The notes under the pieces are model-generated. The model worked only from the letters and a program-made list of their open reading frames with translations. It was not told the origin of the DNA and made no database searches. Positions 45,074 through 63,450 of a stretch of DNA of 64,000 nt are shown piece after piece (position 1 is the first letter of the stretch; every line of letters begins with the position of its first letter). Made by a program: the position numbers and the translations under genes. The DNA lies in NCBI RefSeq assembly GCF_017310035.1, contig NZ_CP022296.1, forward strand, positions 2,976,001-3,040,000. Direction: 5' to 3'. The DNA is from Nocardioides sp. S5. GTDB lineage: Bacteria > Actinomycetota > Actinomycetes > Propionibacteriales > Nocardioidaceae.

Positions 45074-45093
45074 TCTAGTCACTTCTGACCATC
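45074..45093. promoter_or_regulatory. Tad-locus dyad, copy before tadE
   Basis: The 20-base element TCTAGTCACTTCTGACCATC lies about 95 bases upstream of the tadE ATG. It aligns without gaps to the dyad upstream of the flp genes (59704-59723), sharing TAGTCAC and GAC-ATC. Its half-sites resemble those before cpaB. It is a candidate binding site for the LuxR-type regulator of this locus. Confidence 0.55.
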
Positions 45094-45188
45094 TTCCGTC
45101 ACCACCCGGCCGAAGTGCCGTCATTCCAGCGACAGCCGGACCACCGACTCGTACGGTGACAGGCGGACAGTTCGGAGAAGGGGACTTC

Positions 45189-45656
45189 ATGCGCAGGCGC
45201 ACACATATCCACGGACGCACCGAGCGAGGTGCCTCCGCGGTGGAGTTCGCGCTCGTCGTACCTCTTCTCGCTGCACTGCTCTGCGGGATCATCGACTACG
45301 GACTGGTCTTCAACGATTCAGTAAGCACCCGAAACGGGATTCGCGAAGCGGCCCGGCAGGGCGTTGTCTCCGACTTTGGGAGTGGCGCAACGCTCGAGAC
45401 CCTGAAGACACAGGCCAAGGCGGAGATCGGGGCCATCACAGGCACTGCGTCTGTGAAGATCTATGTTCCCGGGAACAAGTGGGAGCGAGGCGCACCCCTC
45501 ATCGTCTGCGCCTCGATTCCCAACCCAGGGTTGATCAATTTCGTCCCCTTGCCTGACAATCTTCGTTCGCGGGTCGAGATGTCGATCGAGACACAGACCT
45601 TGCCGCCCTCAGGGGCCCTCTCGACCGCGGATACCGGAGACTGGTCATGGTGCTGA
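45189..45656 (+). CDS. tadE: TadE-like minor pilin
   Basis: A 155-residue protein with a pseudopilin-type N-terminus: RGASAVEFALVVPLLAALLCGIIDYG, with the Glu five residues after the Gly of the prepilin cleavage motif, then an exported domain ending WSWC. It would assemble in the Flp pilus base or tip. AAGGGG lies five bases before the ATG. It overlaps tadG by 10 bases. Codons are more AT-rich than those of the flanking housekeeping genes. Confidence 0.88.
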   Translation: MRRRTHIHGRTERGASAVEFALVVPLLAALLCGIIDYGLVFNDSVSTRNGIREAARQGVVSDFGSGATLETLKTQAKAEIGAITGTASVKIYVPGNKWERGAPLIVCASIPNPGLINFVPLPDNLRSRVEMSIETQTLPPSGALSTADTGDWSWC

Positions 45657-46939
45657 TCCCCCGGAGCCGCACTCGGAGCCCTCGCGACGAGCGCGGTGCT
45701 GTCCTAGTGTTGGTCGCCATCCTGGCCATCGTCCTGTTCATCGTGTCGGCGCTCGTTGTAGACCTGGGCATGGGCCGCGCCGAACGTCGAACCGTGCAAG
45801 CCACCGCCGACGCGTCCGCGCTGGCTGGGGGCAACGTTCTGTTCGCCGCGAACCCGACCACGCCGGACTACAACGCGGCACGAGACGCGGTCAAGAGCTA
45901 CGCGACCCAGAACCTGGGGCTCTCGAATGCGGACTGGGCGTCGTGCTCCGACTCGACGCCGCTACCGATCAGTTCTGGGACACCGTGCATCTCCTTCGAG
46001 GTGACGACCTCACGAGCACGCGTACGAGTAGTGATCCCGACCCGCACCGTCGGCACCTCGTTCGCCCGCGTCATCGGAGTCAATGAACTCGCGGTGTCCG
46101 CGACGGCGCGGGCCACGATCGAGAGGGACAGTGCGAGCGACTGCGGCCTGTGCGTCCTCGGTAGTGGCTCGACGCACGACATCCAGAACGGTGACGTCAC
46201 CGTCACGGGTGCAGACATCCACTTCAACGGCAATGTCAACGCATCTGCCAACGGGCTCGTGGCCACGAACGGCGAGATCACCGTCGAGGGCACTGCAACC
46301 GGTCCGTCGAGCAGCTATCAACCCGCGCCGACGACCGGCGCCAATGCCATCGCAGATCCGCTCGAGGACTACTACGAGCGCCCCGACATGTCCGGGCTCA
46401 CGGCTGGGTCGGACCCGTGCACCTCGGGCCCCGGAATCTACGGAGATCTCACTGTCAACGGAGGTACGTGCAACCTGTCGCCGGGCCTCTATGTGATCAC
46501 TGGCCTGTGGAAGATGGGCGGCTCCGGCGGCACCATCGCCGGCACTGGCGTGACCCTCTTCTTCGCGTGCGGCACCACCAGTTCGGTCACAGCGTGCGCG
46601 CAGGGCGGCGAGGACGGCGGCACGATCGACACCGGAGGCAATGGCGTGCTGTCGATCACGGCGCCGACGACGGGGAACTACAAGGGCATGGCGTTGTGGT
46701 TCGACCGCAACAACACTGAGGAGGCGCACCTGCACGGCAACGGGCTTGGCGCATTCTCCGGCACCATCTACGGCCAGTCCATCGAGCTCCGCATGAGCGG
46801 CAACGGGTGCAGCAACACCAACGCGCTGATCATCGTGAAGGATCTCGGGTTTGACGGCAACCCGTCATGCCTCACGTCCACCTACGTGCAGGGCGCCAAC
46901 GTGCAGCTGCCGCCCAACAACCTGCACCTGGATCAGTGA
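45647..46939 (+). CDS. tadG: TadG-like pilus-assembly protein with long exported domain
   Basis: A 430-residue protein. The N-terminus RGAVLVLVAILAIVLFIVSALVVDLGMGRAERRTVQATADASALAGG is the TadG-like pilin-type segment (about 17-62). The C-terminal half (about 165-430) is exported and Gly/Thr/Asn-rich with repeated short beta segments (GNGVLSITAPTTGNYKG, GNGLGAFSGTIYGQ), suggesting a solenoid. Several Cys may form disulphides. It is coupled to tadE. Relatively low GC compared with neighbours suggests later acquisition. Confidence 0.82.
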   Translation: MVLIPRSRTRSPRDERGAVLVLVAILAIVLFIVSALVVDLGMGRAERRTVQATADASALAGGNVLFAANPTTPDYNAARDAVKSYATQNLGLSNADWASCSDSTPLPISSGTPCISFEVTTSRARVRVVIPTRTVGTSFARVIGVNELAVSATARATIERDSASDCGLCVLGSGSTHDIQNGDVTVTGADIHFNGNVNASANGLVATNGEITVEGTATGPSSSYQPAPTTGANAIADPLEDYYERPDMSGLTAGSDPCTSGPGIYGDLTVNGGTCNLSPGLYVITGLWKMGGSGGTIAGTGVTLFFACGTTSSVTACAQGGEDGGTIDTGGNGVLSITAPTTGNYKGMALWFDRNNTEEAHLHGNGLGAFSGTIYGQSIELRMSGNGCSNTNALIIVKDLGFDGNPSCLTSTYVQGANVQLPPNNLHLDQ

Positions 46940-46949
46940 TCCGGCGACA

Positions 46950-47336
46950 TCAACCGTCCGCTGGCCAGTCGTCGTCGAGGTCGATGTGCTGGACGTCTGC
47001 CGCTGAAGGCTGCTGGTTCTCGACCGTCGCCATGAAGGCGGCCGCGGCGTGGGCGAGCGACTCCGCCGCGCCGCTCAGGTGGCCCTTGACCTCCGGGCTC
47101 AACCGGCGTACAGCATGGACCGTGCGGCAGAGGGGGCACACCGTGCACTTGGCCGATCCCGTCGACAGGTGGTCGTCGAGGTCGTGCACCGTGGCTGCGG
47201 CGTGGGCCGCGAACCCCGACAACCCCTCTCCCGCGTCTCCGACGTGCTCACGCGCCCAGCCGGAGAGGGCGCCGAAGAGCTTGGCGGCCTCCTCGCCCAA
47301 CGACCCGACCTCGTATGGGTCCCCCGGCTCACTCAC
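46950..47336 (-). CDS. Hypothetical protein with CxxCxxC motif, linked to ArsA ATPase
   Basis: A 128-residue protein resembling the small actinobacterial proteins (DUF5304-like) encoded beside ArsA/SRPBCC genes. Helical with a cysteine cluster CTVCPLC (about residues 64-70) that may bind metal or an FeS centre, and a conserved HAVRRLSPEVKGHLSGAAESLAHAA helix. The C-terminus is acidic (IDLDDDW). Its GTG overlaps the ArsA stop as GTGA. Function is unknown; co-expression with ArsA suggests a partner. Confidence 0.72.
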   Translation of the reverse strand: MSEPGDPYEVGSLGEEAAKLFGALSGWAREHVGDAGEGLSGFAAHAAATVHDLDDHLSTGSAKCTVCPLCRTVHAVRRLSPEVKGHLSGAAESLAHAAAAFMATVENQQPSAADVQHIDLDDDWPADG

Positions 47337-48505
47337 GTGGTCTCCTCGTCGACGAACCTGACCTGGAGCTCCCCGTCCTGCACGCGCGCCCCCGCCACGC
47401 GGAGCCGAGCCAGCCCGGGGGGAAGCGTCAGCAGGCGACGATACGACGCGACCGAGACGACCAGCTCGTCGCCCTTGCGCGCGAGGCGTACGTCGTCCCG
47501 GCTGGCCAGCGGCAGGGGCAGCGCCAGGACACGACCGCCAGCCTCTTGGCGTACGTCCAGGGGCGGGCGTCCCGCCCGTCGCGCCAGCGGGTCGTCACCG
47601 CCGTAGACGGCGCCCGCCAGTTCGAGCAGCTCGGCGCGGCCGACCGGCTCGATGTCGCGGTAGACCGACGTGCGCAGGTCCAGCCCCGCGAAGGAGTCGG
47701 CCGCGTCGGCCAGCACCTGCTGCTGCGCCCGGACCCAGGTCGTACGCCAGGCGTCCGCCCCGCCCTCAGGGAAGACGCGGTTCACCACTGCCGCGTCGAC
47801 GGCGTAGCCGAAGAGCGTGAGGAAGGTGTAGGCGCGGCGGGCCTCGGCGAGCACCACCGACTCCGGGGTCAGCACGAGGCGCACCGACGCGTCCGGCCCC
47901 GTCAGGAGCGTGCGTACGTCGTCGAGCTCGGCGTGCAGGCGCTCGATGGCGTCGAAGACCGAGTCGCCCGGCATCGGCACGCCGGCCGCGCGCGAAAGCA
48001 CGGGCTTGAGGGCCTTCACGACGCGGCGCTCCACGGGCAGCACCCGCGTCATGTACCAGCCGAGCGCCTCGGGCAGCGCGAGCAGGCGCAGCGTCTCCGC
48101 CGTCGGGGCGCAGTCCACAACCAGGACGTCCCACTCCCCCGACCGCGCCTGGGTCCGGACCTCGAGGAGGGCCAGCACCTCCTCGGCCCCCGGGATGACG
48201 GTCAGCTCCTCGGCGGCTACAGGGTCGACCCCGGCCACGTCGAGCACGCTCAGCAGGTAACCCTGGATGTCGCGCCACGACTGCTCGAAGCGCTGCTGGG
48301 CGTCGACGTGCTGCACCCAGAGGTTCGGCGCCGCCTCGGTCGGCTCGCTCGTGGCCAGGACGTCGAGGGCGTCCGCCAGCGAGTGCGCCGCGTCCGTAGA
48401 CAGCACCAGGGTCCGGTGCCCGGCGGACGCCGTACGGCAGGCCGTGGCCGCGGCGAGCGTCGACTTGCCGACGCCGCCCTTGCCGGTGAAGAGGAGGATC
48501 CGCAC
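47333..48505 (-). CDS. ArsA/Get3-family ATPase
   Basis: A 390-residue P-loop ATPase of the actinobacterial ArsA-like type (Rv2184c position). The deviant Walker A is FTGKGGVGKSTLAAATA (about 6-22), switch I is STDAAHSLADAL, and the A-loop-like segment is VVDCAPTAETLRLLALPEALGWYM. A C-terminal alpha-crystallin-like beta segment (VLALPLPLASRDDVRLARKGDELVVSV) fits this subfamily. No arsenic genes are nearby, so a role in protein targeting or complex assembly is more likely than arsenite efflux. It lies 14 bases after the SRPBCC gene. Confidence 0.9.
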   Translation of the reverse strand: MRILLFTGKGGVGKSTLAAATACRTASAGHRTLVLSTDAAHSLADALDVLATSEPTEAAPNLWVQHVDAQQRFEQSWRDIQGYLLSVLDVAGVDPVAAEELTVIPGAEEVLALLEVRTQARSGEWDVLVVDCAPTAETLRLLALPEALGWYMTRVLPVERRVVKALKPVLSRAAGVPMPGDSVFDAIERLHAELDDVRTLLTGPDASVRLVLTPESVVLAEARRAYTFLTLFGYAVDAAVVNRVFPEGGADAWRTTWVRAQQQVLADAADSFAGLDLRTSVYRDIEPVGRAELLELAGAVYGGDDPLARRAGRPPLDVRQEAGGRVLALPLPLASRDDVRLARKGDELVVSVASYRRLLTLPPGLARLRVAGARVQDGELQVRFVDEETT

Positions 48506-48519
48506 GCCGGACCCGGGCG

Positions 48520-48957
48520 TCAGAGTGACTCGACGCGCTTCTTGAGGCCTTTCAGCGCGGTGTCGATGAGGATCTTCTCGCCCTTACGCTTCAGCATACC
48601 GATCAGCGGGATGCTCACGTCGAGGGCGAGGCGGTAGGTCACCTCGGTGCTGCCGTCGCCGTGGTCGACCAGCGTGTAGGCGCCGTCGAGGGCCTTGAGC
48701 ATGTTGCCCTCGACCAGGGTCCAGGTCACCTCGCGGTCGGCGTCCCAGTCGTAGGCGAGGGTGTACTCGTCCTTGATGGGCGAGACGTCGAGGGAGAAGT
48801 AGACCTGCTCGGCACGACCGCCGGTCCCGGCCTCGGTCACCTCGGCCACCTGCACGCCCTTGGCCCACTCAGGGTAGGACTCGAAGTCGGCGATGACGGC
48901 CATGACGTCGGCCGGAGGAGCATCGATCGTGATCGACGAGGAGGTCTGTTCGGCCAT
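48520..48957 (-). CDS. SRPBCC-family protein (Rv2185c-like)
   Basis: A 145-residue START/SRPBCC-fold protein with a hydrophobic ligand cavity: TSSSITIDAPPADVMAVIADFESYPEWAKGVQVAEVTEAG and the C-terminal helix MLKRKGEKILIDTALKGLKKRVES. It matches the polyketide cyclase/COQ10-like family and the Rv2185c position. It may carry a lipid or aromatic ligand. The ATG at 48957 is 6 nt from TAGGCT and heads the operon with the ArsA ATPase and the CxxCxxC protein. Confidence 0.9.
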   Translation of the reverse strand: MAEQTSSSITIDAPPADVMAVIADFESYPEWAKGVQVAEVTEAGTGGRAEQVYFSLDVSPIKDEYTLAYDWDADREVTWTLVEGNMLKALDGAYTLVDHGDGSTEVTYRLALDVSIPLIGMLKRKGEKILIDTALKGLKKRVESL

Positions 48958-48963
48958 GGCCGG

Positions 48964-48969
48964 AGCCTA
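48964..48969 (-). promoter_or_regulatory. -10 hexamer for SRPBCC-arsA operon
   Basis: TAGGCT on the minus strand, exactly six bases before the ATG at 48957. The spacer has no Shine-Dalgarno sequence, so transcription probably begins at the start codon. Confidence 0.55.
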
Positions 48970-49108
48970 GCCCACCGCCCGGACGTGTTCAGGACCTCGT
49001 GCCGCAAGCGGCTGTGAGGCTCGGGCTGCTCGCCCGGCAAGCCGGACGAGATCCCTCAGGCGATAGCCTGCGCTTCGCAGTCGACCGCCCGATCCAGGAG
49101 GTTCCACC

Positions 49109-50905: not shown

Positions 50906-50937
50906 GACGGACCGTTCGGTGAGCCGTCGGGACCGGG

Positions 50938-50961
50938 AATGACCATGCCCGGATAGTCATT
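50938..50961. promoter_or_regulatory. Tad-locus dyad, copy before cpaB
   Basis: AATGACCAT and ATAGTCATT (one mismatch as inverted repeats) are separated by GCCCGG. It is about 70 bases upstream of a TAGATT hexamer at 51030-51035 and 185 bases before cpaB. The half-sites TGACCAT/ATAGTCA are the same as in the dyads before tadE and flp, but face the opposite way. Confidence 0.55.
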
Positions 50962-51029
50962 TCGGGTGGCGCATGGGCCACGTCCGGGTGGTTTGGGCGG
51001 TTTAGCCCGCGACCTCCGCGAGACGCCCC

Positions 51030-51035
51030 TAGATT
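51030..51035 (+). promoter_or_regulatory. Candidate -10 hexamer of the cpaB-tad operon
   Basis: TAGATT lies about 110 bases before the cpaB ATG. No convincing -35 box precedes it, which would suit an activator-dependent promoter. The leader of about 100 bases contains a 7-bp hairpin (GGGGGTC-CCAC-GACCCCC) close to the ribosome site. Confidence 0.35.
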
Positions 51036-51144
51036 CGCATCGCTGGGAGGCACCGGGGCCGATTTCACGCAAGACCCTGGAACCACCTGCGCGCCCGGGA
51101 TCTCCGACCGTGGGGGTCCCACGACCCCCGCGAAGGATCGCACC

Positions 51145-51927
51145 ATGGCTCGCCGTTCAGTACTCCTCCTCGTCGCCGCCCTCATCGCCCTCGCCGGCAC
51201 GGCCATGATCGTGCTCTACGTCCAGGGCATCGACGCCCGCGCCACAAAGGACCAGGAGCTGGTCGAGGTGCTCGTCGCCACCGAGACGATCGACACCGGC
51301 GAGTCGGTCTCCGCGGCTCAAGAGGCCGGCAAGATCGAGAAGTCCGAGGTCCGGCTCGTGGACCTGGTCGAGGGCAGCCTCTCGTCCACGTCCTCGATCT
51401 CCGACCTTGTCGCCGTCGGCACGATCTACCCCGGCGAGCAGCTCATCGCCAAGAAGTTCGGCAGCCTCGGTGACACCCAGAGCTTGGTCGTCCCGGACGG
51501 CAAGATGGCAGTCTCGGTCGAACTCACCGACTTCGAGCGCGTGGCGGGCTTCGTCAACCCCGGCGACGAGGTCGCCGTCTTCGCAACACCACAGGACCTC
51601 ACGGCACTCCTTCCCGACGGCAAGGACAGGCCGTTGGGCGACTACACCCGCATCCTGCTGACGCGCGTTCCTGTTCTCGGGGTCGGCACCACGAGCGTAA
51701 CGTCGACCACCACCAAGACCGAGGACGGCGACCAAGTCGCCGAGCAGGTCGCGCGCACGATCCTGACTCTCGCGGTCACCCAGGAAGAGGCCGAACTGCT
51801 CATCCAGGCCGACCGTAACTCCGACATCACCTTCGCGTTATTGACAGACGAGTCCAAGGTAGAGGACAACGCGGGGATCCGGCCGGGCGACCTGTACCCC
51901 GAGCTCTTCCGCGGACTCCAGCCGTGA
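51145..51927 (+). CDS. cpaB: CpaB/RcpC-like Flp pilus assembly protein (SAF domain)
   Basis: A 260-residue protein with one N-terminal TM (VLLLVAALIALAGTAMIVLYV), a SAF domain (about 38-105: EVLVATETIDTGESVSAAQ and VAVGTIYPGEQLIAKKF) and an RcpC-type domain (MAVSVELTDFERVAGFVNPGDEVAVFAT). It would gate the pilus channel in the envelope. First gene of the cpaB-tadZ-tadA-tadB-tadC-HK-RR operon. ATG with AAGGA 7-8 nt upstream. The tadZ GTG overlaps its stop (GTGA). Confidence 0.9.
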   Translation: MARRSVLLLVAALIALAGTAMIVLYVQGIDARATKDQELVEVLVATETIDTGESVSAAQEAGKIEKSEVRLVDLVEGSLSSTSSISDLVAVGTIYPGEQLIAKKFGSLGDTQSLVVPDGKMAVSVELTDFERVAGFVNPGDEVAVFATPQDLTALLPDGKDRPLGDYTRILLTRVPVLGVGTTSVTSTTTKTEDGDQVAEQVARTILTLAVTQEEAELLIQADRNSDITFALLTDESKVEDNAGIRPGDLYPELFRGLQP

Positions 51928-53183
51928 CCGCCGTACTCGAACCCGACGGCGCCCAGCGGGCGATCCTCCAGGCGATGCTCCACGGGTCGGTGGCCTTCGC
52001 CGACGTGGAGGGCCTCGACGGGCACATCCGCACCACAGCCAACGAGTTCGCCGTCGTCATCGGTCCGTCGGTGCCGGGTGACGCGGCAGCCGAGCTGGCG
52101 CAGTGGGCCCGCGTGCACCGTCCGGACCTCGGCGTGATCCTGCTGCGCAACGACATCGACAGCAACACGCTCTCCCTGGCCTTGCGGAGCGGCATGCGCG
52201 AGGTCGTGGCCGCCCGTGACCTCGCCGGCATCACCACGGCGGTGGCGCGAGCGCGCAGCGTGGCCAACGCCATCGGGCAGACCCTGATGGACGAGGTCCA
52301 AGCGGCCGCACAGACGGCGCGGGCGGAGGTCGCGGCGGAGGTCGCGGAGGCCGCAGCCGTCGCTCAGGCGGAGGCGGACGCACCGCGCGGCAAGGTCATC
52401 ACCGTGTTCTCCACCAAGGGCGGCGTCGGCAAGAGTCTGGTCGCGACCAACCTCGGGGTGGCGATGTCCAGCAGCGGACGCTCGACGTGCCTGGTGGACC
52501 TCGACGTCAACAGCGGCGACGTGGCGATCATGCTCCAGCTGACACCCCAGCGCACGATCAACGACCTCGTCGGCTTCAACGGCGTCATCGACGCCGAAGG
52601 GATCTCGACAATCCTCACGCATCACTCCGACAACCTGTCGGTGGTCGCTGCACCGGTGCGCCTCGACTCCCCCGACCAGGCCTCGGTCGACGACATCGGC
52701 AAGCTGCTCGACGCGCTGCGGCGGATGGTCGACTTCGTGGTCGTCGACACCTCCGGGGTCTTCGACGACAACGCACTGTGCGCCCTCGACCGCTCAGACA
52801 TGATCGTGCTGGTCGGCACTCTCGACATCCCGTCGCTCAAGGCGCTCAAGCTCGCCACTAGCACGCTCGACATGCTCAACTTCCCCAAGGCCACGTGGAA
52901 GTTCGTGCTCAACCGTGCCGACGGCAAGGTCGGCCTGACCTCCGACGAGTACGAGAAGACCCTGGACCTCAAGGCGGACTGCTCGCTCGTGTCGAGCCGC
53001 GAGGTGCTCGCAGCCGTCAACCGGGGCGAGGCGCTCGTGAGCGCCTACCCCGGACATCCCAACAGCAAGGCCCTGGTCGCGTTCTCCCGCAACGTGACCG
53101 ACGCCCTCGGCGCCGCCGACGGCGCGGCCGACCCGTCCAGCCGGAAGTCCAGTGGCTCCCGGCTCCGCCTCAGGAGGGGCTGA
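51924..53183 (+). CDS. tadZ: TadZ/CpaE-like ParA-family ATPase
   Basis: A 419-residue protein. The N-terminal 130 residues look like a degenerate receiver domain (no clear phospho-Asp pocket), joined by an Ala/Glu-rich coiled linker to a MinD/ParA ATPase. The deviant Walker A is FSTKGGVGKSLVATNLGVAM (about residues 160-179), then LVDLDVNSGDVAIML and a VVVDTSGVFDD Walker B. It places the Tad secretion machine at its cell site. Coupled by GTGA overlap to cpaB. The tadA GTG follows one base after its stop. Confidence 0.9.
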   Translation: MTAVLEPDGAQRAILQAMLHGSVAFADVEGLDGHIRTTANEFAVVIGPSVPGDAAAELAQWARVHRPDLGVILLRNDIDSNTLSLALRSGMREVVAARDLAGITTAVARARSVANAIGQTLMDEVQAAAQTARAEVAAEVAEAAAVAQAEADAPRGKVITVFSTKGGVGKSLVATNLGVAMSSSGRSTCLVDLDVNSGDVAIMLQLTPQRTINDLVGFNGVIDAEGISTILTHHSDNLSVVAAPVRLDSPDQASVDDIGKLLDALRRMVDFVVVDTSGVFDDNALCALDRSDMIVLVGTLDIPSLKALKLATSTLDMLNFPKATWKFVLNRADGKVGLTSDEYEKTLDLKADCSLVSSREVLAAVNRGEALVSAYPGHPNSKALVAFSRNVTDALGAADGAADPSSRKSSGSRLRLRRG

Positions 53184-53184
53184 C

Positions 53185-54627
53185 GTGAGCCTGACAGACC
53201 GACTGGCCGCAGCACGCGGCCGTGGCCCCGAGACCATTGACAAGCCACCGGCGCCGGGCGCTGTTGCGGGCGCCCCCACCACCGTGCCTACCGCGACTGC
53301 GGCACCGTCGGGCGGAGGGGCCAAGCGCAAGCCAGCCTCGCCCAAGTCCGACCCCTTCCAGGACCTGAAGCGGATCGTGCACCAACGGCTCGTGGAGTCG
53401 CTCGGACCCAAGCTGTACGACGCCCACATGACGCAGTCGGAGCTCGAGCAGCAGGTGCGGCTGGCCCTCCAGACGGCCATCGCCGACGCCGACATCCCCA
53501 TGTCGTCCGCGGATCGCACCCGCGTCTCGCAGGAGATCGCCGACGACATCCTCGGTTACGGACCCATCGAGCCGCTGCTGCGCGACTCCAGCCTGTCTGA
53601 GGTCATGGTCAACTCCTACCAGGACATCTACGTCGAGCGCAGCGGCAAACTCGTCCGGGTGGACACGTCGTTCACCGACGAGGCCCACCTGCGTCGCACC
53701 ATCGACAAGATCGTCAGCAAGATCGGCCGCCGCGTCGACGAGACGAGTCCGATGTGCGACGCCCGCCTGCCCGACGGCAGCCGTGTCAACGCGATCATCC
53801 CTCCGCTGGCCCTCGACGGCTCCAAGCTCACCATCCGCAAGTTCTCCGAGGACCCCTACACCGTTGACGACCTGATCAACTTCGGCACGCTCACCCCGGC
53901 GTCAGCCGGTCTGCTCGAGGGCTGCGTGCGGGGTCGTCTCAACATCCTGGTCTCAGGTGGAACGGGCTCCGGAAAAACGACCACGCTCAACGTGCTCTCG
54001 TCCTTCATCCCCGAGGACGAGCGCATCGTCACCATCGAGGACGCCGCCGAGCTGCGGCTCGGTCAGGACCACGTGCTGCGCCTGGAGTCGCGCCCGGCCA
54101 ACATTGAGGGCAAGGGCGCGGTCACTATCCGCGACCTGGTGAAGAACTCCCTGCGCATGCGGCCCGACCGGGTGGTCGTCGGCGAGATCCGTGACGCTGC
54201 CGCGCTCGACATGCTTCAAGCGATGAACACCGGCCACGACGGCTCGATCTCGACCCTGCACGCCAACACACCGCGTGACGCCCTGGCCCGTCTGGAGACC
54301 ATGGTGCTCATGGCCGGCATGGACCTGCCCGTGCGCGCCATCCGCGAGCAGGTCGCCAGCGCTGTCGACCTGATCATCCAGCAGACCCGTCTCAAGGACG
54401 GCACCCGTCGCATCACCGCGATCACCGAGATCGTCGGCATGGAGGGCGACATCATCACCACCCAGGACGTGTTCATGTTCGACTACGCCGCGGGTGTGGA
54501 CGAGAACGGCAGGTTCCAGGGCGGCCTGAAGTCCATGGGCCTGCGGCCCCGCTTCCTCGAGCGCCTGACCGACCACGGCGTGCACGTGGACCCGGCCATC
54601 TTCGCCACAGGCGGAACCCTGCGATGA
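53185..54627 (+). CDS. tadA: TadA/CpaF secretion ATPase
   Basis: A 480-residue hexameric ATPase of the type II/IV secretion superfamily powering pilin export. Walker A is GGTGSGKTTTLN (about 257-268), the Asp box is IVTIEDAAELRL, Walker B is RPDRVVVGEIRDAAALDMLQAMNTGHDG, and the His box is STLHANTPRDALARLETM. The GTG at 53185 has AGGAGG seven bases upstream and is preferred over an in-frame ATG-type start at 53152 inside tadZ. Its stop overlaps the next ATG (ATGA). Confidence 0.93.
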   Translation: MSLTDRLAAARGRGPETIDKPPAPGAVAGAPTTVPTATAAPSGGGAKRKPASPKSDPFQDLKRIVHQRLVESLGPKLYDAHMTQSELEQQVRLALQTAIADADIPMSSADRTRVSQEIADDILGYGPIEPLLRDSSLSEVMVNSYQDIYVERSGKLVRVDTSFTDEAHLRRTIDKIVSKIGRRVDETSPMCDARLPDGSRVNAIIPPLALDGSKLTIRKFSEDPYTVDDLINFGTLTPASAGLLEGCVRGRLNILVSGGTGSGKTTTLNVLSSFIPEDERIVTIEDAAELRLGQDHVLRLESRPANIEGKGAVTIRDLVKNSLRMRPDRVVVGEIRDAAALDMLQAMNTGHDGSISTLHANTPRDALARLETMVLMAGMDLPVRAIREQVASAVDLIIQQTRLKDGTRRITAITEIVGMEGDIITTQDVFMFDYAAGVDENGRFQGGLKSMGLRPRFLERLTDHGVHVDPAIFATGGTLR

Positions 54628-56513
54628 AGTCGTCACGCACCACCCGAGCGGCGGCGACCCTGGCGGTCGGTGTGCTGCTCGCGCTCGGCACCACACTTCC
54701 CGCCCACGCGGAGGACGAGGTCAACATCGACCACATCGAGTCGGTCGACGGACAGGTGTCGCTCGTGCTCGCGGTCGACGGCATCCCCGGCGACAGCGAC
54801 GTCGATGCCTCCTCCGTGCGCGTGGAGGTCGACGGCCGGGCCGTGGAGTCCACCGCCAAGCTGATCTCCGCCGGCGACGTAGAGCGGACGACGGTGCTGG
54901 TGCTCGATGCCAGCAACAGCATGCGCCAGGGCGACAAGTTCACCGCGGCCACCAGCGCCGTCGACACCTTCCTCGCATCCGCCCCCGACGACATCCGGAT
55001 CGGACTTGTCGCCTTTGCCGGCGACATCGGCACGGTGGTGCAGCCCACCACCGACCACGCCTCCGTGCAGGCTGCCCTCACCAGCATCGAGCTCCGGAAG
55101 GGCACAGCCGTCTACGACGGCATCGCCGAGGGTCTCGACTTGGTCGGCGCGGAAGGCTCGCGCTCGCTCCTCGTGCTTTCCGACGGCGGTGACACCAGCA
55201 GTTCGACGACGCTCGACGTGGTCAGCAACGACGCCACCGACGTCGGCGTGGTCGTCGACGTCGTGTCGCTCGCGAACCCCAAGAACGCCGAGACCATGTT
55301 GGAGCTGGCCGAGGACACGGGCGGTCAGGTGATCCCAGCCGAGCAGGACGCCCTCTCGTCAGTGTTCTCCGCGCAGGCCGACGCGCTGGCCAAGCAGCTG
55401 CTGGTCGCCTTCGACCGCCCCGAGGACGCGTCGAGCGAGGTCAACCTCGGCGTGAGCGTCGACACTGCCGAGGCGACGTACACGGACTCCGCCTTCATCT
55501 CGATCGGTGCGGCACCCGCCGCCCCTGACCTTGTGTCGTCAGGCCGCTCGCTCGTGGGCACACCAGGCATGCTGATGGGCGCCGTCGCGCTCGGCCTCGG
55601 CTTCGCTGGCATCTTGGCCGTCGTCCTCGCAGGACCGAACAAGTCGTCCGCCGACCGACGCCTCGACGCGTACTTCGGCGGTGACGGCAAGAGCGGGAAG
55701 CGGAAATCGGACACAACGGCGGACCTCAAGGGGTCGGCGGTAGCGCTCACCGACAAGGTCGTCTCCGCGGACCTCGAGTCCCGGATCTCCCAGCGCCTCG
55801 CGGGCGCCGGATCCGCGCTGACAGCCTCGGAGTGGCTGCTACTGCACGCCGGCATCGCCGTCGCGTCGGCCCTCGTGGGATTCGTCCTGAGGGGGCCCGG
55901 CCTCGCCGGACTCGGCCTCGTCCTTGGCATCATCGTGCCGTGGGTCTACCTGAAGTTCCGCCACTCTCGGCGCCTGAATCGTTTCAACGGCCAGCTGGCC
56001 GAGACGCTGGGCCTGATGGCAGGTGGCCTCCAAGCCGGCTTGTCCCTTCCTCAAGCCATCGACAGCGTGGTCCGCGAGGGCATCGAACCGATGGCAGGTG
56101 AACTCCGGCGTGCCCTGATCGAGCAGCGCTTGGGGGTCGACATCACCGACGCCCTCGAAGGTGTCGGTTTCCGCATGGACAGCGAAGACTTCAATTGGAT
56201 CGTCATGGCCATCCGGATTCAACGCGAGGTCGGCGGCAACCTCGCTGAGATCCTGCACACTGTGGCTGACACCCTTCGTGAACGAGAGTATCTGCGCCGC
56301 CAGGTCAAGGCGCTGAGCGCCGAGGGGCGGCTGTCCGGTTACATTCTGACCGGTCTGCCACCGCTGATCGGCCTCTACATGCTGTTCGCCAACCCCGATT
56401 ACGTTGCTCTGCTCTACACCACGTTGCCCGGATTCATCCTACTCGGGGCCGCTGCTCTGTTGCTGGGGGTCGGCTCGTTCGCCATGTCCAAGCTCGCGAA
56501 GGTCGAGGTTTGA
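54624..56513 (+). CDS. tadB: Fusion of exported von Willebrand A domain with TadB-type (T2SS F) membrane protein
   Basis: A 629-residue composite. A signal peptide (TLAVGVLLALGTTLPAHA) leads to a VWA domain (about 85-260) with an intact MIDAS: DASNS (about 94-98), Thr in KGTAVYDGI and Asp in SDGGDTSS. A TM at about 314-336 (GMLMGAVALGLGFAGILAVVLAG) is followed by a cytoplasmic linker and the TadB-like F domain (about 395-625: GLMAGGLQAGLSLPQAI, MAIRIQREVGGNLAEIL, LREREYLRRQVKALSAEGRLSGYIL). Usual TadB has no VWA. It may link the pilus inner-membrane platform to an extracellular ligand. Confidence 0.87.
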   Translation: MKSSRTTRAAATLAVGVLLALGTTLPAHAEDEVNIDHIESVDGQVSLVLAVDGIPGDSDVDASSVRVEVDGRAVESTAKLISAGDVERTTVLVLDASNSMRQGDKFTAATSAVDTFLASAPDDIRIGLVAFAGDIGTVVQPTTDHASVQAALTSIELRKGTAVYDGIAEGLDLVGAEGSRSLLVLSDGGDTSSSTTLDVVSNDATDVGVVVDVVSLANPKNAETMLELAEDTGGQVIPAEQDALSSVFSAQADALAKQLLVAFDRPEDASSEVNLGVSVDTAEATYTDSAFISIGAAPAAPDLVSSGRSLVGTPGMLMGAVALGLGFAGILAVVLAGPNKSSADRRLDAYFGGDGKSGKRKSDTTADLKGSAVALTDKVVSADLESRISQRLAGAGSALTASEWLLLHAGIAVASALVGFVLRGPGLAGLGLVLGIIVPWVYLKFRHSRRLNRFNGQLAETLGLMAGGLQAGLSLPQAIDSVVREGIEPMAGELRRALIEQRLGVDITDALEGVGFRMDSEDFNWIVMAIRIQREVGGNLAEILHTVADTLREREYLRRQVKALSAEGRLSGYILTGLPPLIGLYMLFANPDYVALLYTTLPGFILLGAAALLLGVGSFAMSKLAKVEV

Positions 56514-56514
56514 G

Positions 56515-57450
56515 ATGACCGAGATGACGTTGTTGGCAGGCGCAGGCCTGCTCTGTGTCGCTACTGTTCTTGCTCTGTCAGTTATCGGAGTGGTGACCGC
56601 CGAGCGGCGTGGCGTCGCTCGGTCCGTGGCTGCCGTACAGGCACTCGACTCAGCCCCGGCCGTGCTGAAGGAGGAGATCGATCAATCGTTCGCCGAGCGC
56701 GTGATTGCGCCTCTCGGCGAGCGGCTCGTCGGCATTGGGCGAAGACTTGTCCGTGCTGACACCGCAGTGAAGCTCCAGTACCGCCTCGACATCGCAGGTA
56801 ATCCGCCAGCGTGGGACGTGAATCGCATCCTGGGCCTCAAAATTCTTGGTCTGGCTGTCTTTGGTCCGCTCTCCTTTCTATACCTCTTGGGCACGGGCTG
56901 GCCGTTCTACCGGGTGGTCATCGCGACCGGCCTGGCCGCGGGCTTCGGCTACGTACTGCCGAACGTGCTGCTTTACAACGCCGGATCAAAGCGCGAGACA
57001 CTCATGCGCAACGCTCTACCGGACGCCATGGACCTCCTCACCATCTCAGTAGAGGCTGGTCTTGGGTTCGACGCTGCCGTGAGTCGCGTCGCCAAGAACG
57101 GCGACGGACCCTTGAACATGGAGTTCACCCGCCTCTTGCAGGAGATGCAGCTCGGTGTCGGTCGGACGGATGCCATGCGCGCCATGGCCGAACGCTCGTC
57201 ACTCGCAGACCTGAAGTCGTTTTGTAGCGCCATGGTGCAGGCCGACAGCCTCGGAATCCCGATCGCACGAGTCCTGCGCATCCAAAGCCAGGAAATGCGC
57301 ACCAAGCGCCGTCAACGGGCCGAGGAAAAAGCGCAGCAGGTGCCTATCCGAATCATGATTCCCCTCGTCCTGTTCATCCTGCCGTGCCTCTTCATCGTCA
57401 TCCTGGGACCTGCCGGCATCCAGATTGCCGACTCGTTCTCGAACATGTGA
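56515..57450 (+). CDS. tadC: TadC-like inner-membrane platform protein (T2SS F domain)
   Basis: A 311-residue F-domain protein, partner of TadB. N-terminal TM (LLAGAGLLCVATVLALSVIGVV), a two-helix membrane pair (ILGLAVFGPLSFLYLLG and VVIATGLAAGFGYVLPNVL), then the F domain with LPDAMDLLTISVEAGLGFDAAVSRVAK and FCSAMVQADSLGIPIARVLRIQSQEMRTKRRQRAEEKAQQVPIR. ATG one base after the tadB stop. An upstream extension within tadB is rejected. Its codons are noticeably less GC-rich than those of housekeeping genes here. Confidence 0.9.
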   Translation: MTEMTLLAGAGLLCVATVLALSVIGVVTAERRGVARSVAAVQALDSAPAVLKEEIDQSFAERVIAPLGERLVGIGRRLVRADTAVKLQYRLDIAGNPPAWDVNRILGLKILGLAVFGPLSFLYLLGTGWPFYRVVIATGLAAGFGYVLPNVLLYNAGSKRETLMRNALPDAMDLLTISVEAGLGFDAAVSRVAKNGDGPLNMEFTRLLQEMQLGVGRTDAMRAMAERSSLADLKSFCSAMVQADSLGIPIARVLRIQSQEMRTKRRQRAEEKAQQVPIRIMIPLVLFILPCLFIVILGPAGIQIADSFSNM

Positions 57451-57457
57451 CCCGTTG

Positions 57458-59035
57458 ATGACCCCCACCGCGCCGCAGGACGGCAGTGCGCCCAGCCCCG
57501 CGCTCACGTCCTGGCGCACGACGACAGCCGTGCGCGTGTTCGCCCTGGCCCTGGCCACGGGCACGGCACTCAGCAGCGGTGTCTTCGTCCAGTCCACCCC
57601 GATCCTGGTGGTGCTCGTCATGACTGCCGCGGTCACCTCGCTGGTCGAGTGGGTGACTCGCAACCGCCCTCTGCACTGGCATGTCGTGGCTGAGGCCGTG
57701 GCGGTGACCGCCCTGCTCGTCGCCACCCAGTCCACGTTCGAGCTCGGCGCCTACCTCGCCGTGCCACCGATCGCTGCCGGGGTCCGCCACGGTCTCGTCA
57801 CCACTCTCAACGTGACCCTCGTGTCCGTCCTGACCGTCGCGGCGACGGTCGCGACAGATCCCGCCTCCGACACCCTTCGGCGGATGGGCGAGACGGTGCT
57901 CTGGCTCGCGATCGGATTGGGCGTGGGGCTGCTCGCGAGCCTCCAGTCGCGCTCGACCCGCACGATGGCGGCGCGCCAGGCGCCGTACGCCACCGCCCAC
58001 CAGCTCATGGAACGCATCCACCGTCTCGCACGCTCGGGCAACCTCGGGCTCGACAGCGCCGCGCTCGCCTCCGACCTCGACAGCGCCATGCAGCGAGCCA
58101 GTGGGTGCGCCAGGTCGACGGTCTTCGTCGTGGATCCCGACGAGACGCTCCGCTCGCTGAACGCCGGGGACGACGCCGAGCGACTGGCGACGGAGATCGG
58201 GCTTCCGGAGTGGGAGCGCACCCCGGGCGCGGCGGTGGTGCCTCTACGCGGCTCCCAGCAGGTGCTGGGCTACTGCGTCCTCGTCGGCGTGCCTCGTTGG
58301 ACGGCGGAGCTGGACGAGCGAGCACTCGAGGTCGCCGACGAGTTCGCCCTACGACTCGACACGGCGATTCTCTTCGACGACATCCGCGTCCTGGCCACCT
58401 CCGAGGAGCGCACCAGGATCGCGCGCGAGATGCACGACGGGGTCGCCCAGGAGATCGTGGGCCTGGGCTACATCGTTGACGAGATCGAGTCCATGAGCGA
58501 CCACGAGCAGACCAGGGCGCTGGCCTCGGAGCTGCGCGAGGAGATCACCCGACTCGTCTCGGAGATCCGCTTCTCCATCTTCGACCTGCGCCACGAGGTC
58601 ACTGACGGCCGCCTGTCTAGCCCGTTGGCCGACTACGCGCGCGAGGTCAGCCATGCGACCGGCCTCCGGGTCCACCTCTCGCTGGCCGAGTCCGGCCCCC
58701 CTCTGCCTCCCCGGACCGCCACCGAGGTGCTGCGGGTGGCGCAGGAGGCCATCGGCAACGTCCGCAAGCACGCCCGCGCCGAGAACCTCTGGGTCACCCT
58801 CGACTCCGACGGATCGTCACTGCGGCTCGAGGTCGCGGACGATGGGATCGGCAACGCCGAGCCCCGCGATCACCACTGGGGACTCCAGACGATGCGGGAG
58901 CGTGCTGCCACTGTCGGCGCCCAGCTCGCGGTCACCCCCCGCCACGACGGCGGAACCGTCGTCAGCCTGCGGTCGCCGACGACCGCTCCCCCCGAAGGAG
59001 ACAACGCCCATGGGCACCACCGTGCTACTGGTTGA
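57458..59035 (+). CDS. Sensor histidine kinase of the Tad locus
   Basis: A 525-residue NarX-type kinase. An N-terminal membrane region (about 30-165, five or six TM) precedes a GAF-like domain (about 190-300: RSTVFVVDPDETLRSLNAG), a HisKA_3 helix with IAREMHDGVAQEIVGLGYIVDEIE (His about 325) and a HATPase (EVLRVAQEAIGNVRKHAR, VADDGIGN). It starts seven bases after tadC and overlaps the regulator by 26 bases, so it belongs to the Tad operon and presumably controls pilus expression. Confidence 0.9.
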   Translation: MTPTAPQDGSAPSPALTSWRTTTAVRVFALALATGTALSSGVFVQSTPILVVLVMTAAVTSLVEWVTRNRPLHWHVVAEAVAVTALLVATQSTFELGAYLAVPPIAAGVRHGLVTTLNVTLVSVLTVAATVATDPASDTLRRMGETVLWLAIGLGVGLLASLQSRSTRTMAARQAPYATAHQLMERIHRLARSGNLGLDSAALASDLDSAMQRASGCARSTVFVVDPDETLRSLNAGDDAERLATEIGLPEWERTPGAAVVPLRGSQQVLGYCVLVGVPRWTAELDERALEVADEFALRLDTAILFDDIRVLATSEERTRIAREMHDGVAQEIVGLGYIVDEIESMSDHEQTRALASELREEITRLVSEIRFSIFDLRHEVTDGRLSSPLADYAREVSHATGLRVHLSLAESGPPLPPRTATEVLRVAQEAIGNVRKHARAENLWVTLDSDGSSLRLEVADDGIGNAEPRDHHWGLQTMRERAATVGAQLAVTPRHDGGTVVSLRSPTTAPPEGDNAHGHHRATG

Positions 59036-59657
59036 CGACCACGAGCTGATCCGGCAGGGCCTCGCCCGTGCCTTCGAGCGCGACGTCGACATGACCGTGA
59101 TCGGCCAGGCGGGCAGCGTCGAGGGGGGCATCTCCTTCTGGGATGACCTCCAGCCCGACGTGGTCGTTACCGACCTCCAGATGCCGGACGGCAGTGGCCT
59201 CGACGTCGTGCGCGCGATCCGCGCGAAGAGCGACACCACCGGCGTCGTGGTCCTCACCATGCACGCGGGCGACGACCAGATCTTCGCCGCCATGGAGGCG
59301 GGAGCGTCGGCCTTCGTGGGCAAGGACACCCGTGCCACCGAGGTGGTGAGCGCTGCCAAGCACGCGGCAGTGGCCCCACGCACGTTCCTCTGCGCCGGCC
59401 TCAGCCGGGCCGTGATGCGCCGGGCAACCTCACCTGCGCCGCCCAGGCTGTCGGGACGCGAGTCGGAGGTCCTCGCGCTGCTGGCCGACGGGCTCGGCAC
59501 CGGTGAGATCGCCGGCTCGCTCTTCATGAGCGAGTCGACGGCCAAGACCCACATCACCCACATCTACCAGAAGCTGGGCGCCGCGAACCGCGCCCAGGCG
59601 CTGGTGACGGCCATGCGGCTCGGGCTCCTCGACCACACCTCACCGCAACGGTTCTGA
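59010..59657 (+). CDS. LuxR-type response regulator of the Tad locus
   Basis: A 215-residue regulator: VLLVDDHELIRQGL, phospho-Asp in VVVTDLQMPDGSG, Lys in AFVGKDTR, and C-terminal LuxR HTH LSGRESEVLALLADGLGTGEIAGSLFMSESTAKTHITHIYQKL. AAGGAG lies 8 nt before the ATG at 59010, within the kinase gene. Its own DNA target may be the TAGTCA/TGACYA dyads before tadE, cpaB and flp. The nearest copy is only 47 bases downstream of its stop. Confidence 0.92.
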   Translation: MGTTVLLVDDHELIRQGLARAFERDVDMTVIGQAGSVEGGISFWDDLQPDVVVTDLQMPDGSGLDVVRAIRAKSDTTGVVVLTMHAGDDQIFAAMEAGASAFVGKDTRATEVVSAAKHAAVAPRTFLCAGLSRAVMRRATSPAPPRLSGRESEVLALLADGLGTGEIAGSLFMSESTAKTHITHIYQKLGAANRAQALVTAMRLGLLDHTSPQRF

Positions 59658-59703
59658 GCCAGCGACCGAGTGGTGTCCCCCGGCCCTGCGCGGGTGGTCG
59701 GCA

Positions 59704-59723
59704 GATAGTCACAAGGGACTATC
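59704..59723. promoter_or_regulatory. Tad-locus dyad, copy before flp
   Basis: GATAGTC-ACAAGG-GACTATC, a perfect 7-bp inverted repeat, lies 115 bases upstream of the first flp ATG and directly after the response-regulator gene. It aligns without gaps to the element before tadE and shares half-sites with the one before cpaB. Confidence 0.6.
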
Positions 59724-59837
59724 CAGAGGAGGCCGATCACCCGATTCAACAAGTGCCGGAACTTGGCAGAGTTCTCTCGACGGGTCCTCGTGGACTCGGA
59801 ACCGAGACTCATCACACATACACCAAGGGGAAACACC

Positions 59838-60011
59838 ATGCTCGAGAAGTTCATCACCCTCATGCTTGTTGGCCGCGACGAGGAGAAGGGCGCCACCGCA
59901 GTGGAGTACGCCCTCATGGTTGCGCTCATCGCCGTGTTCATCATCGGCGCCGTCCAGTTCCTCGGCGGTGCGCTCGACGGCCTGTTCCGTCGGATTGGTG
60001 GCGCGGTCTGA
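59838..60011 (+). CDS. flp: Flp-family pilin 1
   Basis: A 57-residue Flp/Fap pilin. The short basic leader ends in EEKGATAVEYALMVALIAVFI. The Glu-Tyr pair after the Gly-Ala cleavage site is diagnostic, followed by one hydrophobic helix and the short C-terminus FLGGALDGLFRRIGGAV. After cleavage by a TadV/CpaA peptidase (none in the window) it polymerises into the pilus. AAGGGG lies seven bases before the ATG; a longer start at 59763 has no ribosome site. A terminator follows at 60030-60065. Confidence 0.92.
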   Translation: MLEKFITLMLVGRDEEKGATAVEYALMVALIAVFIIGAVQFLGGALDGLFRRIGGAV

Positions 60012-60065: not shown

Positions 60066-60317
60066 CGTCTGCTCTTCCAAGCGCATTGGCCCCGCTTCGC
60101 CCCGGTCCGTCGTTCCCCGAAGAGCGGCGTTGGTGAGTTTTTCCCACGGTCACCGCCGGGCTGCCCAGGAACGGAGAAGGTGACTCGCAAGTGGCCCTAA
60201 CGAACTATCGCGTTGGAGCCGATCGCCTGACCCGCGGCACCGTCGTGAGGCGACATGCTTGTCTCGGACGGGTCTGAAAGGCTCGCCAATTCATTCTTAT
60301 CACTGCAAGGGGAATCC

Positions 60318-60488
60318 ATGTTCGACAAGTTCATCACCCTTATGCTTAGTCGCGACGAAGAGAAGGGCGCCACCGCAGTGGAGTACGCTCTCATGGTTGC
60401 GCTGATCGCCGTGTTCATCATTGGTGCCGTCCAGTTCCTGGGCGGTGCACTGGACGGTCTCTTCCGTCAGATTGGTGCCGCGATCTGA
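60318..60488 (+). CDS. flp: Flp-family pilin 2 (near-duplicate of pilin 1)
   Basis: A 56-residue pilin almost identical to pilin 1 through EEKGATAVEYALMVALIAVF and the remainder of the helix. It differs mainly in the leader (MFDKFITLMLSRD against MLEKFITLMLVGRD) and the last residues (QIGAAI). AAGGGG five bases before the ATG. It arose by tandem duplication with about 300 bases of distinct leader. A hairpin (60502-60533) follows. Confidence 0.92.
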   Translation: MFDKFITLMLSRDEEKGATAVEYALMVALIAVFIIGAVQFLGGALDGLFRQIGAAI

Positions 60489-60501
60489 CGTTTGCATCTC
60501 G

Positions 60502-60533
60502 GAGACCGGTGTCGCACGCTCACCACCGGCCTC
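60502..60533 (+). terminator. Hairpin terminator after flp pilin 2
   Basis: Arms GAGACCGGTG and CACCGGCCTC pair over nine of ten positions around a 12-nt loop, followed by a pyrimidine-rich tract. It sits between the second and third pilin-like genes. Confidence 0.55.
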
Positions 60534-60568
60534 TCTTCATTCCAGCGTCTGGAAGGACGGGTAAAGGT

Positions 60569-63155: not shown

Positions 63156-63174
63156 GAGCGGGGGTACTCCCTCA

Positions 63175-63309: not shown

Positions 63310-63450
63310 ACGGGTGGTGCGGGGGTGTGGTCGACAATTCGGCGCGACGCCCGCGCGGGCCTGGTGACCCACTGCCACGGACGTCAGCCCACACCCTAGA
63401 CCGGAGGTGCAGGCCCCGCCAATCTTCGCGACAACTTCTCGAGATGTGTC

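What the first reader, a model, noticed from the sequence alone, without database searches (positions are those of the whole stretch)
45074..59723. A shared TAGTCA/TGACYA dyad before all three Tad transcription units
The elements before tadE (45074-45093) and flp (59704-59723) align ungapped over 20 bases with TAGTCAC and GAC-ATC in common. The one before cpaB (50938-50961) has the same half-sites in everted order with a 6-nt gap. A LuxR-type regulator and its kinase lie in the operon, making a self-contained pilus regulon with an identifiable operator likely.
Basis: partly seen in the sequence, partly recalled or inferred. Interest (0 to 1): 0.7.

Follow-up and report, generated by a model that had tools for sequence, protein, structure and literature searches.

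The report
Shared pilus, flagella and wblA operator
The repeated DNA signature before the pilus genes looks like a genuine docking site for a gene regulator in Nocardioides and its relatives, but it also sits before genes for a WhiB-type regulator and flagella and persists where the pilus cluster's own regulator is missing, so it probably belongs to a cell-wide switch, most likely the relative of the Streptomyces developmental regulator OrrA.

Summary
The elements follow a 16-bp palindrome, TRGYC-M-N-WW-N-K-GRCYA. The window's genome (a Nocardioides) has six strict matches against 0.5 expected and none for the reversed pattern; two are the tadE and flp elements. All 32 related Tad loci carry the dyad just after the operon's regulator gene, before flp where flp was placed (28). 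The cpaB element is an asymmetric version, kept only in the close clade. It is not a self-contained pilus operator: the dyad stands before a wblA-type gene in Nocardioides lacking Flp pilins and that regulator; in a related genus it stands before flp although no kinase or regulator is in those Tad loci. It also precedes fliA/flgN, fliM and TadE-like genes in relatives. The operon regulator's DNA-reading helix varies; the site keeps its consensus. The best candidate is the orphan NarL-type regulator beside mtrAB and hpf, the syntenic counterpart of Streptomyces OrrA, which a review says directly regulates wblA. It was found in all 16 family genomes tested, with a nearly invariant reading helix. 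Binding was not tested; OrrA as binder is an inference.

The parts
45076..45091 (+). 16-bp palindromic operator before tadE, TAGTCACTTCTGACCA (16/16 to the consensus), at -113 of tadE
   Evidence: 16/16 counterparts at -113 to -142 in G007, G019, G017 and G005, 14/16 in G030, 13/16 in G020a (6 loci read)
45189..45656 (+). tadE
   Evidence: Pfam TadE 7.6e-13
45647..46939 (+). TadG-like gene
   Evidence: Pfam Tad 5.1e-07
50940..50945 (.). everted extra half-site TGACCA before cpaB, starting 14 bp before the core half-site
   Evidence: TGACYA at exactly -14 in 18 of 28 distinct close-clade loci with the core
50954..50969 (+). cpaB operator TAGTCATTTCGGGTGG at -191: left half and core as in the consensus, right half GGTGG instead of GACTA
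   Evidence: core in 28 of 34 distinct close-clade loci but in only 8 of the 32 loci; right halves in the 28: GGTGG 13, GACTA 7, GGCCA 4, GGCTA 4
51145..51927 (+). cpaB/rcpC
   Evidence: Pfam RcpC 7.8e-22
51924..53183 (+). cpaE/tadZ-like ATPase
   Evidence: Pfam ParA/AAA_31
53152..54627 (+). cpaF/tadA ATPase (ORF; true start may be internal)
   Evidence: Pfam T2SSE 1.3e-67
54624..56513 (+). tadB fused to a von Willebrand factor A domain
   Evidence: Pfam VWA_2 and T2SSF
56512..57450 (+). tadC
   Evidence: Pfam T2SSF 1.7e-19
57425..59035 (+). sensor histidine kinase of the Tad operon
   Evidence: Pfam HisKA_3, HATPase_c
59010..59657 (+). LuxR/NarL-type response regulator of the Tad operon
   Evidence: start at 59010; Pfam Response_reg and GerE; cpaB to regulator found in the same order in 32 of 32 relatives' loci
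59706..59721 (+). 16-bp palindromic operator before flp, TAGTCACAAGGGACTA, at -132 of flp
   Evidence: counterpart (at least 8/10) within 230 bp after the regulator match in 32 of 32 relatives' loci
59741..59747 (+). CCGATTC, recurring block after the flp dyad, candidate -35-like element
   Evidence: seen by eye in the dyad-anchored listing of 33 flp upstream regions; a sigma-70 scan found no promoter
59765..59773 (+). GGCAGAGTT, second recurring block, candidate -10-like element
   Evidence: inference
59838..60011 (+). flp pilin gene
   Evidence: Pfam Flp_Fap 1.2e-14
60192..60207 (+). weak match TGGCCCTAACGAACTA (15/16) before the second flp-like gene
   Evidence: not tested for conservation

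Best explanation
The elements are operators of one NarL/LuxR-type response regulator that binds as a dimer to a 16-bp palindrome (TRGYC-M-N-WW-N-K-GRCYA). Across the family its regulon covers Tad pilus genes, a wblA-type WhiB regulator, flagellar genes (fliA/flgN, fliM), TadE-like and other exported proteins; in this genome, flp, tadE, an asymmetric site at cpaB, the wblA-type gene and a few others. The likeliest binder is not the Tad operon's own regulator but the orphan regulator encoded after mtrA-mtrB-lpqB-comF-hpf, the syntenic counterpart of Streptomyces OrrA, probably acting as an activator from about 60-70 bp before the start of transcription. The Tad operon's kinase and regulator would be a second, pilus-specific layer. 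SHOWN by sequence: the motif, its enrichment, its conservation at flp, its other targets, its persistence without the Tad regulator, and presence of the OrrA counterpart in the motif-bearing genomes sampled. INFERRED: binding by the OrrA counterpart, activation, and the role of the Tad regulator.
For: Motif: 32 of 32 loci at 8/10 or better and 27 of 32 at 9/10 or better within 230 bp after the regulator match, against 99 and 6 of 2077 control segments of equal length, mostly coding, from the same loci. Enrichment: 106 Nocardioides genomes with the Tad regulator hold 317 TAGTC-N6-GACTA sites against 105 for the reversed pattern. Independence from the Tad regulator: site before the wblA-type gene in 8 of 8 tested regulator-less Nocardioides and 7 of 8 g26 genomes; 4 of 18 g26 exact sites fetched lie before an flp gene, and tblastn of kinase and regulator against those Tad loci gives nothing at E<=0.1, while the same regulator query hits 32 times in the 32 Nocardioides loci (Pfam check of the G188 cluster). 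Tad regulator helix varies (SESTAKTHITHIYQ, SESTAKSHIARIYQ, SESTTKSHIARIYQ, GESTVKTHLNRVYR and others). OrrA counterpart: gene order mtrA, mtrB, lpqB, comF-like, hpf, regulator in the own genome (mtrA and hpf named by NCBIfam above cut-off; others by reading or weak Pfam); present in 16 of 16 family genomes tested and 1 of 6 outgroups at E<=1e-60; recognition helix S[ED]NTVKNH[VI]RN[IM]LEKLQ in all 17. A review states that wblA expression is directly regulated by OrrA (PMC9739842, section 3.20) and tabulates OrrA as SCO3008, close in number to MtrAB, SCO3012-3013. Five wblA-like loci from four outgroup genomes have no site (best 12-13 of 16); two of those genomes, G037 and G040, were tested for the OrrA counterpart and had none at that cut-off. 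The NarL 7-2-7 site TACCCCTAAAGGGGTA and the BldM site TCACcCgnncGgGTGA are also 16-bp palindromes.
Against: No binding data. No published OrrA binding sequence was seen, so no direct motif match. The OrrA counterpart is very common (7875 of 8000 scored candidates at E<=1e-60), so its presence everywhere is weak evidence; only six outgroup genomes were tested, and E<=1e-60 can miss diverged orthologs. A site before its own gene was seen only in G008 (16/16), G187 (15/16) and G036 (14/16), not in the own genome, the six other Nocardioides genomes read or G049, nor in six g26 genomes (best 11-13 of 16). G094 has the OrrA counterpart but no site at wblA. In 13 Nocardioides without the Tad regulator the total is 18 against 13 control, not significant: most extra sites go with the pilus. 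The three loci with the most divergent Tad regulator helix (G020a, G013b, G010) have weaker flp sites, 9/10, 8/10 and 8/10, as if site and helix changed together, although three loci with ordinary or nearly ordinary helices (G002, G003, G004) are also at 8/10. The name wblA is recalled; WhiB membership was tested. The test genomes without the Tad regulator were picked because they had motif hits.
Confidence: 0.55

Rival explanations
1. The Tad operon's own LuxR-type regulator binds these sites, and has recruited wblA and other genes into its regulon; elsewhere a paralog with the same specificity keeps the wblA and flp sites.
For: The operon regulator and the dyad co-occur in 32 of 32 loci; most sites are in genomes with the regulator (317 in 106 genomes against 18 in 13); the three loci with the most divergent helix have weaker sites; control of flp by a two-component regulator, PprB, is known in Pseudomonas (passages of PMC6821963; the regulator's class is recalled).
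Against: Sites before the wblA-type gene in 8 of 8 tested genomes without the regulator; sites before flp where the Tad locus encodes neither kinase nor regulator; no paralog stands out there (best hit per genome 32-40 % identity); the helix varies more than the site.
Confidence: 0.22
2. Another family-wide DNA-binding protein of a different class (XRE, CRP/FNR, Lrp/AsnC or PadR type) binds the palindrome.
For: The binder was not identified directly; 5-N6-5 palindromes with an A/T centre are compatible with several classes (recalled); an Lrp-type ligand-binding protein is a recurrent target.
Against: Length and layout match NarL-type sites; an independently described link exists from OrrA to wblA.
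Confidence: 0.18
3. The shared elements are chance AT-rich dyads in a GC-rich genome.
For: Perfect 7-N6-7 dyads as such are common (15 in the window); the cpaB version is absent from 24 of 32 relatives' loci.
Against: Conservation after the regulator gene in 32 of 32 loci against controls; 6 sites against 0.53 expected and 0 reversed.
Confidence: 0.02

Closest known systems
OhkA-OrrA pathway of Streptomyces coelicolor (OrrA = SCO3008)
   Same: Orphan NarL-type regulator near mtrAB (lpqB, comF and hpf as Streptomyces neighbours are recalled); wblA as direct target according to a review
   Different: Pilus and flagellar targets are not in the passages I saw; kinase ortholog not searched; OrrA's binding sequence not seen
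BldM / BldM-WhiI regulons of Streptomyces (PMC4125116, passages)
   Same: NarL-type regulator (class recalled), 16-bp palindrome for homodimers, asymmetric sites with one shared half-site for heterodimers
   Different: Half-site TCACcC instead of TRGYCM; different targets; review passages put WhiI almost only in developmentally complex actinomycetes and BldM's distribution close to it
PprA-PprB control of flp in Pseudomonas aeruginosa (PMC6821963, passages)
   Same: Two-component control of flp transcription
   Different: Putative PprB site GGCTAATAC; here the site persists without the operon's regulator
TcrA regulon of Actinoplanes missouriensis (PMC12691653, passages)
   Same: Orphan regulator with a global regulon in an actinomycete
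   Different: TcrA box is a direct repeat of GCA(A/C)CCG, not this palindrome

Membership tests
Operator of a NarL/LuxR-type response regulator | About 16-bp inverted repeat of the 7-2-7 type | tested here: met
   TRGYCMNWWNKGRCYA from 33 sites, compared with NarL and BldM sites
Operator of a NarL/LuxR-type response regulator | Bound by such a protein | not testable with these tools
   no binding data
OrrA regulon | OrrA ortholog encoded | tested here: inconclusive
   syntenic NarL-type regulator after mtrA, mtrB, lpqB, comF-like, hpf; the sequence of SCO3008 itself was not compared
OrrA regulon | Site before wblA | tested here: met
   own genome 354642; 15 of 16 other family genomes tested; that the gene is wblA is recalled
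OrrA regulon | OhkA kinase ortholog | not tested
   -
OrrA regulon | Match to a published OrrA binding sequence | not testable with these tools
   none in the rows listed by the paper search for OrrA or the passages seen
Self-contained regulon of the Tad operon's regulator | Site absent where this regulator is absent | tested here: not met
Self-contained regulon of the Tad operon's regulator | Targets limited to pilus genes | tested here: not met
   wblA-type gene in the own genome; fliA/flgN, fliM and a WXG100 gene in relatives
BldM regulon | TCACcCgnncGgGTGA | tested here: not met
   consensus differs in the half-site
TcrA regulon | Direct repeat GCA(A/C)CCG-n4-GCA(A/C)CCG | tested here: not met
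   inverted, different repeat

The most novel reading that the evidence does not exclude
The asymmetric cpaB operator of this clade (TAGTC half plus core, then GGTGG instead of GACTA in 13 of 28 loci, with an everted half 14 bp upstream in 18 of 28) is read by a heterodimer or mixed complex of the OrrA counterpart and the Tad operon's regulator. A cell-wide surface switch and a pilus-specific signal would then be combined on one promoter, as BldM and WhiI are in Streptomyces, with flp and wblA under the homodimer.
Probability: 0.08. Interest if true: 0.78.

Novelty: new member of a known kind. Interest (0 to 1): 0.55.

Why it matters
It turns a guessed pilus operator into a defined family-wide DNA motif with a testable binder, and gives a candidate binding sequence for OrrA, for which the passages I saw give none. 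If right, a regulator studied in Streptomyces for sporulation and antibiotics governs pili, flagella and WblA in other actinobacteria, which would suggest that the developmental circuit grew out of a surface-lifestyle switch. It also warns that a regulator gene inside an operon need not own the operators before that operon.

Tried and rejected
Rejected: chance (controls); BldM motif; TcrA box; the DosR-like regulator at G000:3842288 (recognised by recall from its HTH; its recalled binding site differs); a diverged Tad-type regulator in regulator-less genomes (no clear ortholog). My note that the everted parse at cpaB was 'probably wrong' was overturned. The same note's '4/4 tad loci' in g26 overstates: those four loci were found through the motif; the fair count is 4 of 18 fetched g26 sites. 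In three of these four (G076, G188, G094) the site lies between two flp-like genes. A draft of this report gave cpaB conservation without saying that one search covered the close clade only; one search corrected it (8 of 32).

Led nowhere: sigma-70 promoter scan (0 found, 0.8 expected by shuffling); Rfam (only a distant c-di-AMP riboswitch); NCBIfam gave no model above cut-off to either regulator among the rows shown, nor to the wblA-type protein; the protein search with the OrrA counterpart gave only generic names among its 120 listed rows; the gene after clpX had no Pfam match.

Selection to bear in mind: the 8 regulator-less Nocardioides and 8 g26 genomes were chosen among genomes with at least one exact motif hit; 11 of 13 regulator-less Nocardioides had one. 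The site lists were cut by the tool and only the printed part was used; of the printed sites 48 loci (which also read L001 and L003), 18 g26 loci and the 20 loci were read, not all. One search drops six loci that repeat a genome. Distances after the regulator are from the end of its tblastn match. Gene calls at sites are ORFs picked by GC of codon positions; some picks are antisense; only genes named with a Pfam or NCBIfam call were confirmed. NCBIfam's FliA_WhiG match of L373 is just below its cut-off (178.4 against 189.6). In one search five outgroup loci were not read by my pattern and were read; one search missed the six g26 proteins, read.
Full report
What is there. The window lies in a 4.75-Mb genome whose closest named relatives by the Tad regulator are Nocardioides species. 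The flp element is a perfect palindrome; the tadE element has the same layout with two mismatches in the 12 specified positions; the cpaB element has the half-sites everted.

Is it real. In the 32 related Tad loci fetched (all 32 non-own hits at 59 % identity or more, from 30 genomes) cpaB, cpaE, cpaF, tadB, tadC, kinase and regulator are found in the same order. All 32 carry TAGTC-N6-GACTA, at 8 of 10 letters or better, within 230 bp after the regulator match: 21 at 10/10, 6 at 9/10, 5 at 8/10. In control segments of equal length from the same loci, mostly coding, 99 of 2077 reach 8/10, 6 reach 9/10 and 1 reaches 10/10. In four of the 32 loci (L091, L093, L097, L110) tblastn found no flp hit, so there the site is placed only by the regulator gene. 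The 33 flp sites (own included) give the palindrome TRGYC-M-N-WW-N-K-GRCYA. In the own genome this strict pattern occurs six times against none for the reversed pattern and 0.53 expected: before the wblA-type gene, tadE, flp and the gene after clpX, at a divergent pair with a protein that looks exported, and at one place with no clear target. Over 106 Nocardioides genomes with the Tad regulator the core pattern occurs 317 times against 105 for the control (Wilcoxon p about 1e-13); over 13 without it, 18 against 13, not significant.

tadE and cpaB. The tadE site is 16/16 at -113 to -142 in four of six relatives' loci read (G007, G019, G017, G005), 14/16 in G030 and 13/16 in G020a. Before cpaB, 28 of 34 distinct loci of the close clade (own included) have the left half and core TAGTC[AC]nWWn[GT]G at -175 to -258; the right half is GGTGG in 13 (as here), GACTA in 7, GGCCA in 4 and GGCTA in 4. 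But over the 32 loci the cpaB core is present in only 8, all with a Tad regulator at least 80 % identical, and in none of the 24 others; three of those (G034, G014, G033) have an 8/10 dyad near -155. So the everted arrangement is real and kept within the clade, but it is an addition to an asymmetric, clade-specific site, not a third copy of the same dyad.

Not a pilus-only operator. Exact or strict sites in the own genome or relatives also precede a WhiB gene that I take for wblA (Pfam Whib; the name is recalled), lying in the own genome between a PASTA penicillin-binding protein and an ArsA-type ATPase. In relatives they precede FliA-type sigma and FlgN genes (L373), fliM (L344), TadE-like genes (L114, L343), a WXG100 gene (L342), a single-domain response regulator (L146), a sigma factor (L122) and an Lrp-type ligand-binding protein (L126). 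Seventeen Nocardioides genomes without the Tad regulator have no Flp pilin match (0 of 17), yet 8 of 8 of those tested keep a 10/10 site before the WhiB gene, 134 to 147 bp before its ATG (chosen among genomes with motif hits). In genus g26 of the same family no ortholog of the Tad regulator was found at E<=1e-50, and the best hit in each of eight g26 genomes is 33-38 % identical; 7 of 8 have a site at wblA (8/10 to 10/10), G094 none. Of 18 g26 sites fetched, 4 lie before an flp gene, 2 before the wblA-type gene and 1 before another WhiB gene. In the four flp cases no kinase or LuxR-type regulator was seen in the Tad locus, tblastn with the Tad kinase, the Tad regulator and the OrrA counterpart gave nothing at E<=0.1 over the stretches fetched, and Pfam confirms the G188 cluster as cpaB, cpaE, cpaF, tadB, tadC followed by a desaturase. 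An unlinked regulator cannot be excluded.

Who binds it. The Tad regulator's recognition helix differs between clades while the site keeps its consensus. Against this argument, the three loci with the most divergent helix (G020a, G013b, G010) have sites at 9/10, 8/10 and 8/10; but G002, G003 and G004, with ordinary or nearly ordinary helices, also have 8/10. A strict site before the gene of an orphan NarL-type regulator in G008 led to a second candidate, encoded after hpf. In the own genome the order is mtrA (NCBIfam above cut-off), mtrB, lpqB, a ComF-like gene, hpf (above cut-off), then this regulator (mtrB and lpqB are by reading, the ComF-like gene has a Pfam phosphoribosyltransferase match below cut-off). 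It was found in 16 of 16 family genomes tested (10 Nocardioides, 6 g26) and 1 of 6 outgroups at E<=1e-60, with a nearly invariant recognition helix. I had recalled the Streptomyces locus SCO3008 as its counterpart (note); [quoted passage not shown]). Passages of PMC10608281 report wbl genes downregulated in an orrA mutant and similar morphology of orrA and wblA mutants. That a candidate chosen on other grounds has the independently found target as its known target is the strongest argument for it. The original OrrA papers were not seen.

How it may work. In the dyad-anchored listing the flp dyad is followed by CCGATTC-like and, about 19 bases later, CAGAGTT-like blocks in many loci, and the wblA dyad by TCTGAC- and TAGATT-like blocks; by eye this puts the dyad centre some 60 to 70 bp before transcription, an activator's place. 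That is inference: no start site is known and a sigma-70 scan found no promoter. Some wblA promoters have two dyads 14 bp apart.

Against this reading. Presence of so common a regulator proves little (7875 of 8000 scored candidates at E<=1e-60). Six outgroups are few. Sites before its own gene are confined to G008, G187 and G036 among the 17 read. Most sites go with the pilus system. No binding was measured. The Tad regulator may still bind, alone or jointly. After rechecking I lowered the main confidence from 0.58 to 0.55 for the helix-site correlation, raised the Tad-regulator rival from 0.20 to 0.22 and the other-class rival from 0.17 to 0.18, and lowered the heterodimer case from 0.10 to 0.08 for the limited spread of the cpaB site.

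Literature seen. Passages of PMC4125116, PMC4255298, PMC8467076, PMC12691653, PMC8325347, PMC10608281, PMC6821963 and PMC4549865; one section and passages of PMC9739842. The rows listed by paper searches (capped lists of an open-access library) showed no paper on this motif or on Tad regulation in Nocardioides.

Noticed in passing
window 63184-63344 (-): c-di-AMP riboswitch (Rfam RF00379, 51.7 bits) at the start of the ORF 62166-63311 (-), which reads like an NlpC/P60-type secreted protein (by eye).
   Followed up: no
window 54624-56513: TadB is fused to an N-terminal von Willebrand factor A domain (Pfam VWA_2 plus T2SSF).
   Followed up: no
L284, L288, L133, upstream of the wblA-type gene: G036, G238 and G023 carry two exact dyads offset by 14 bp, the GACTA of one running into the TAGTC of the next.
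   Followed up: partly
L003 (G000:C1:3324043-3327060): The gene after clpX (240 aa, no Pfam match) has a strict dyad and a second, imperfect one in tandem; sites also precede its apparent counterpart in relatives (L116, L145, L149, L152, L158).
   Followed up: partly
L049 and L051 (other family, f4): TAGTCAACCCTGACTA lies at the start of a PadR-like gene (by eye) in two genomes, possibly an unrelated autoregulatory operator.
   Followed up: no
L252, L253 (family f3): NarL-type regulators 42-47 % identical to the Tad regulator sit among genes that read like type IV pilus genes, suggesting an old link of this regulator family with pili.
   Followed up: no
window 60255-60730: Two further flp-like genes follow flp; the last scores below the Pfam cut-off.
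   Followed up: no
L096/L097 (G020) and L102/L103 (G013): Two genomes have two Tad loci each (cpaB to regulator), all four with a dyad of at least 8/10 after the regulator gene.
   Followed up: no
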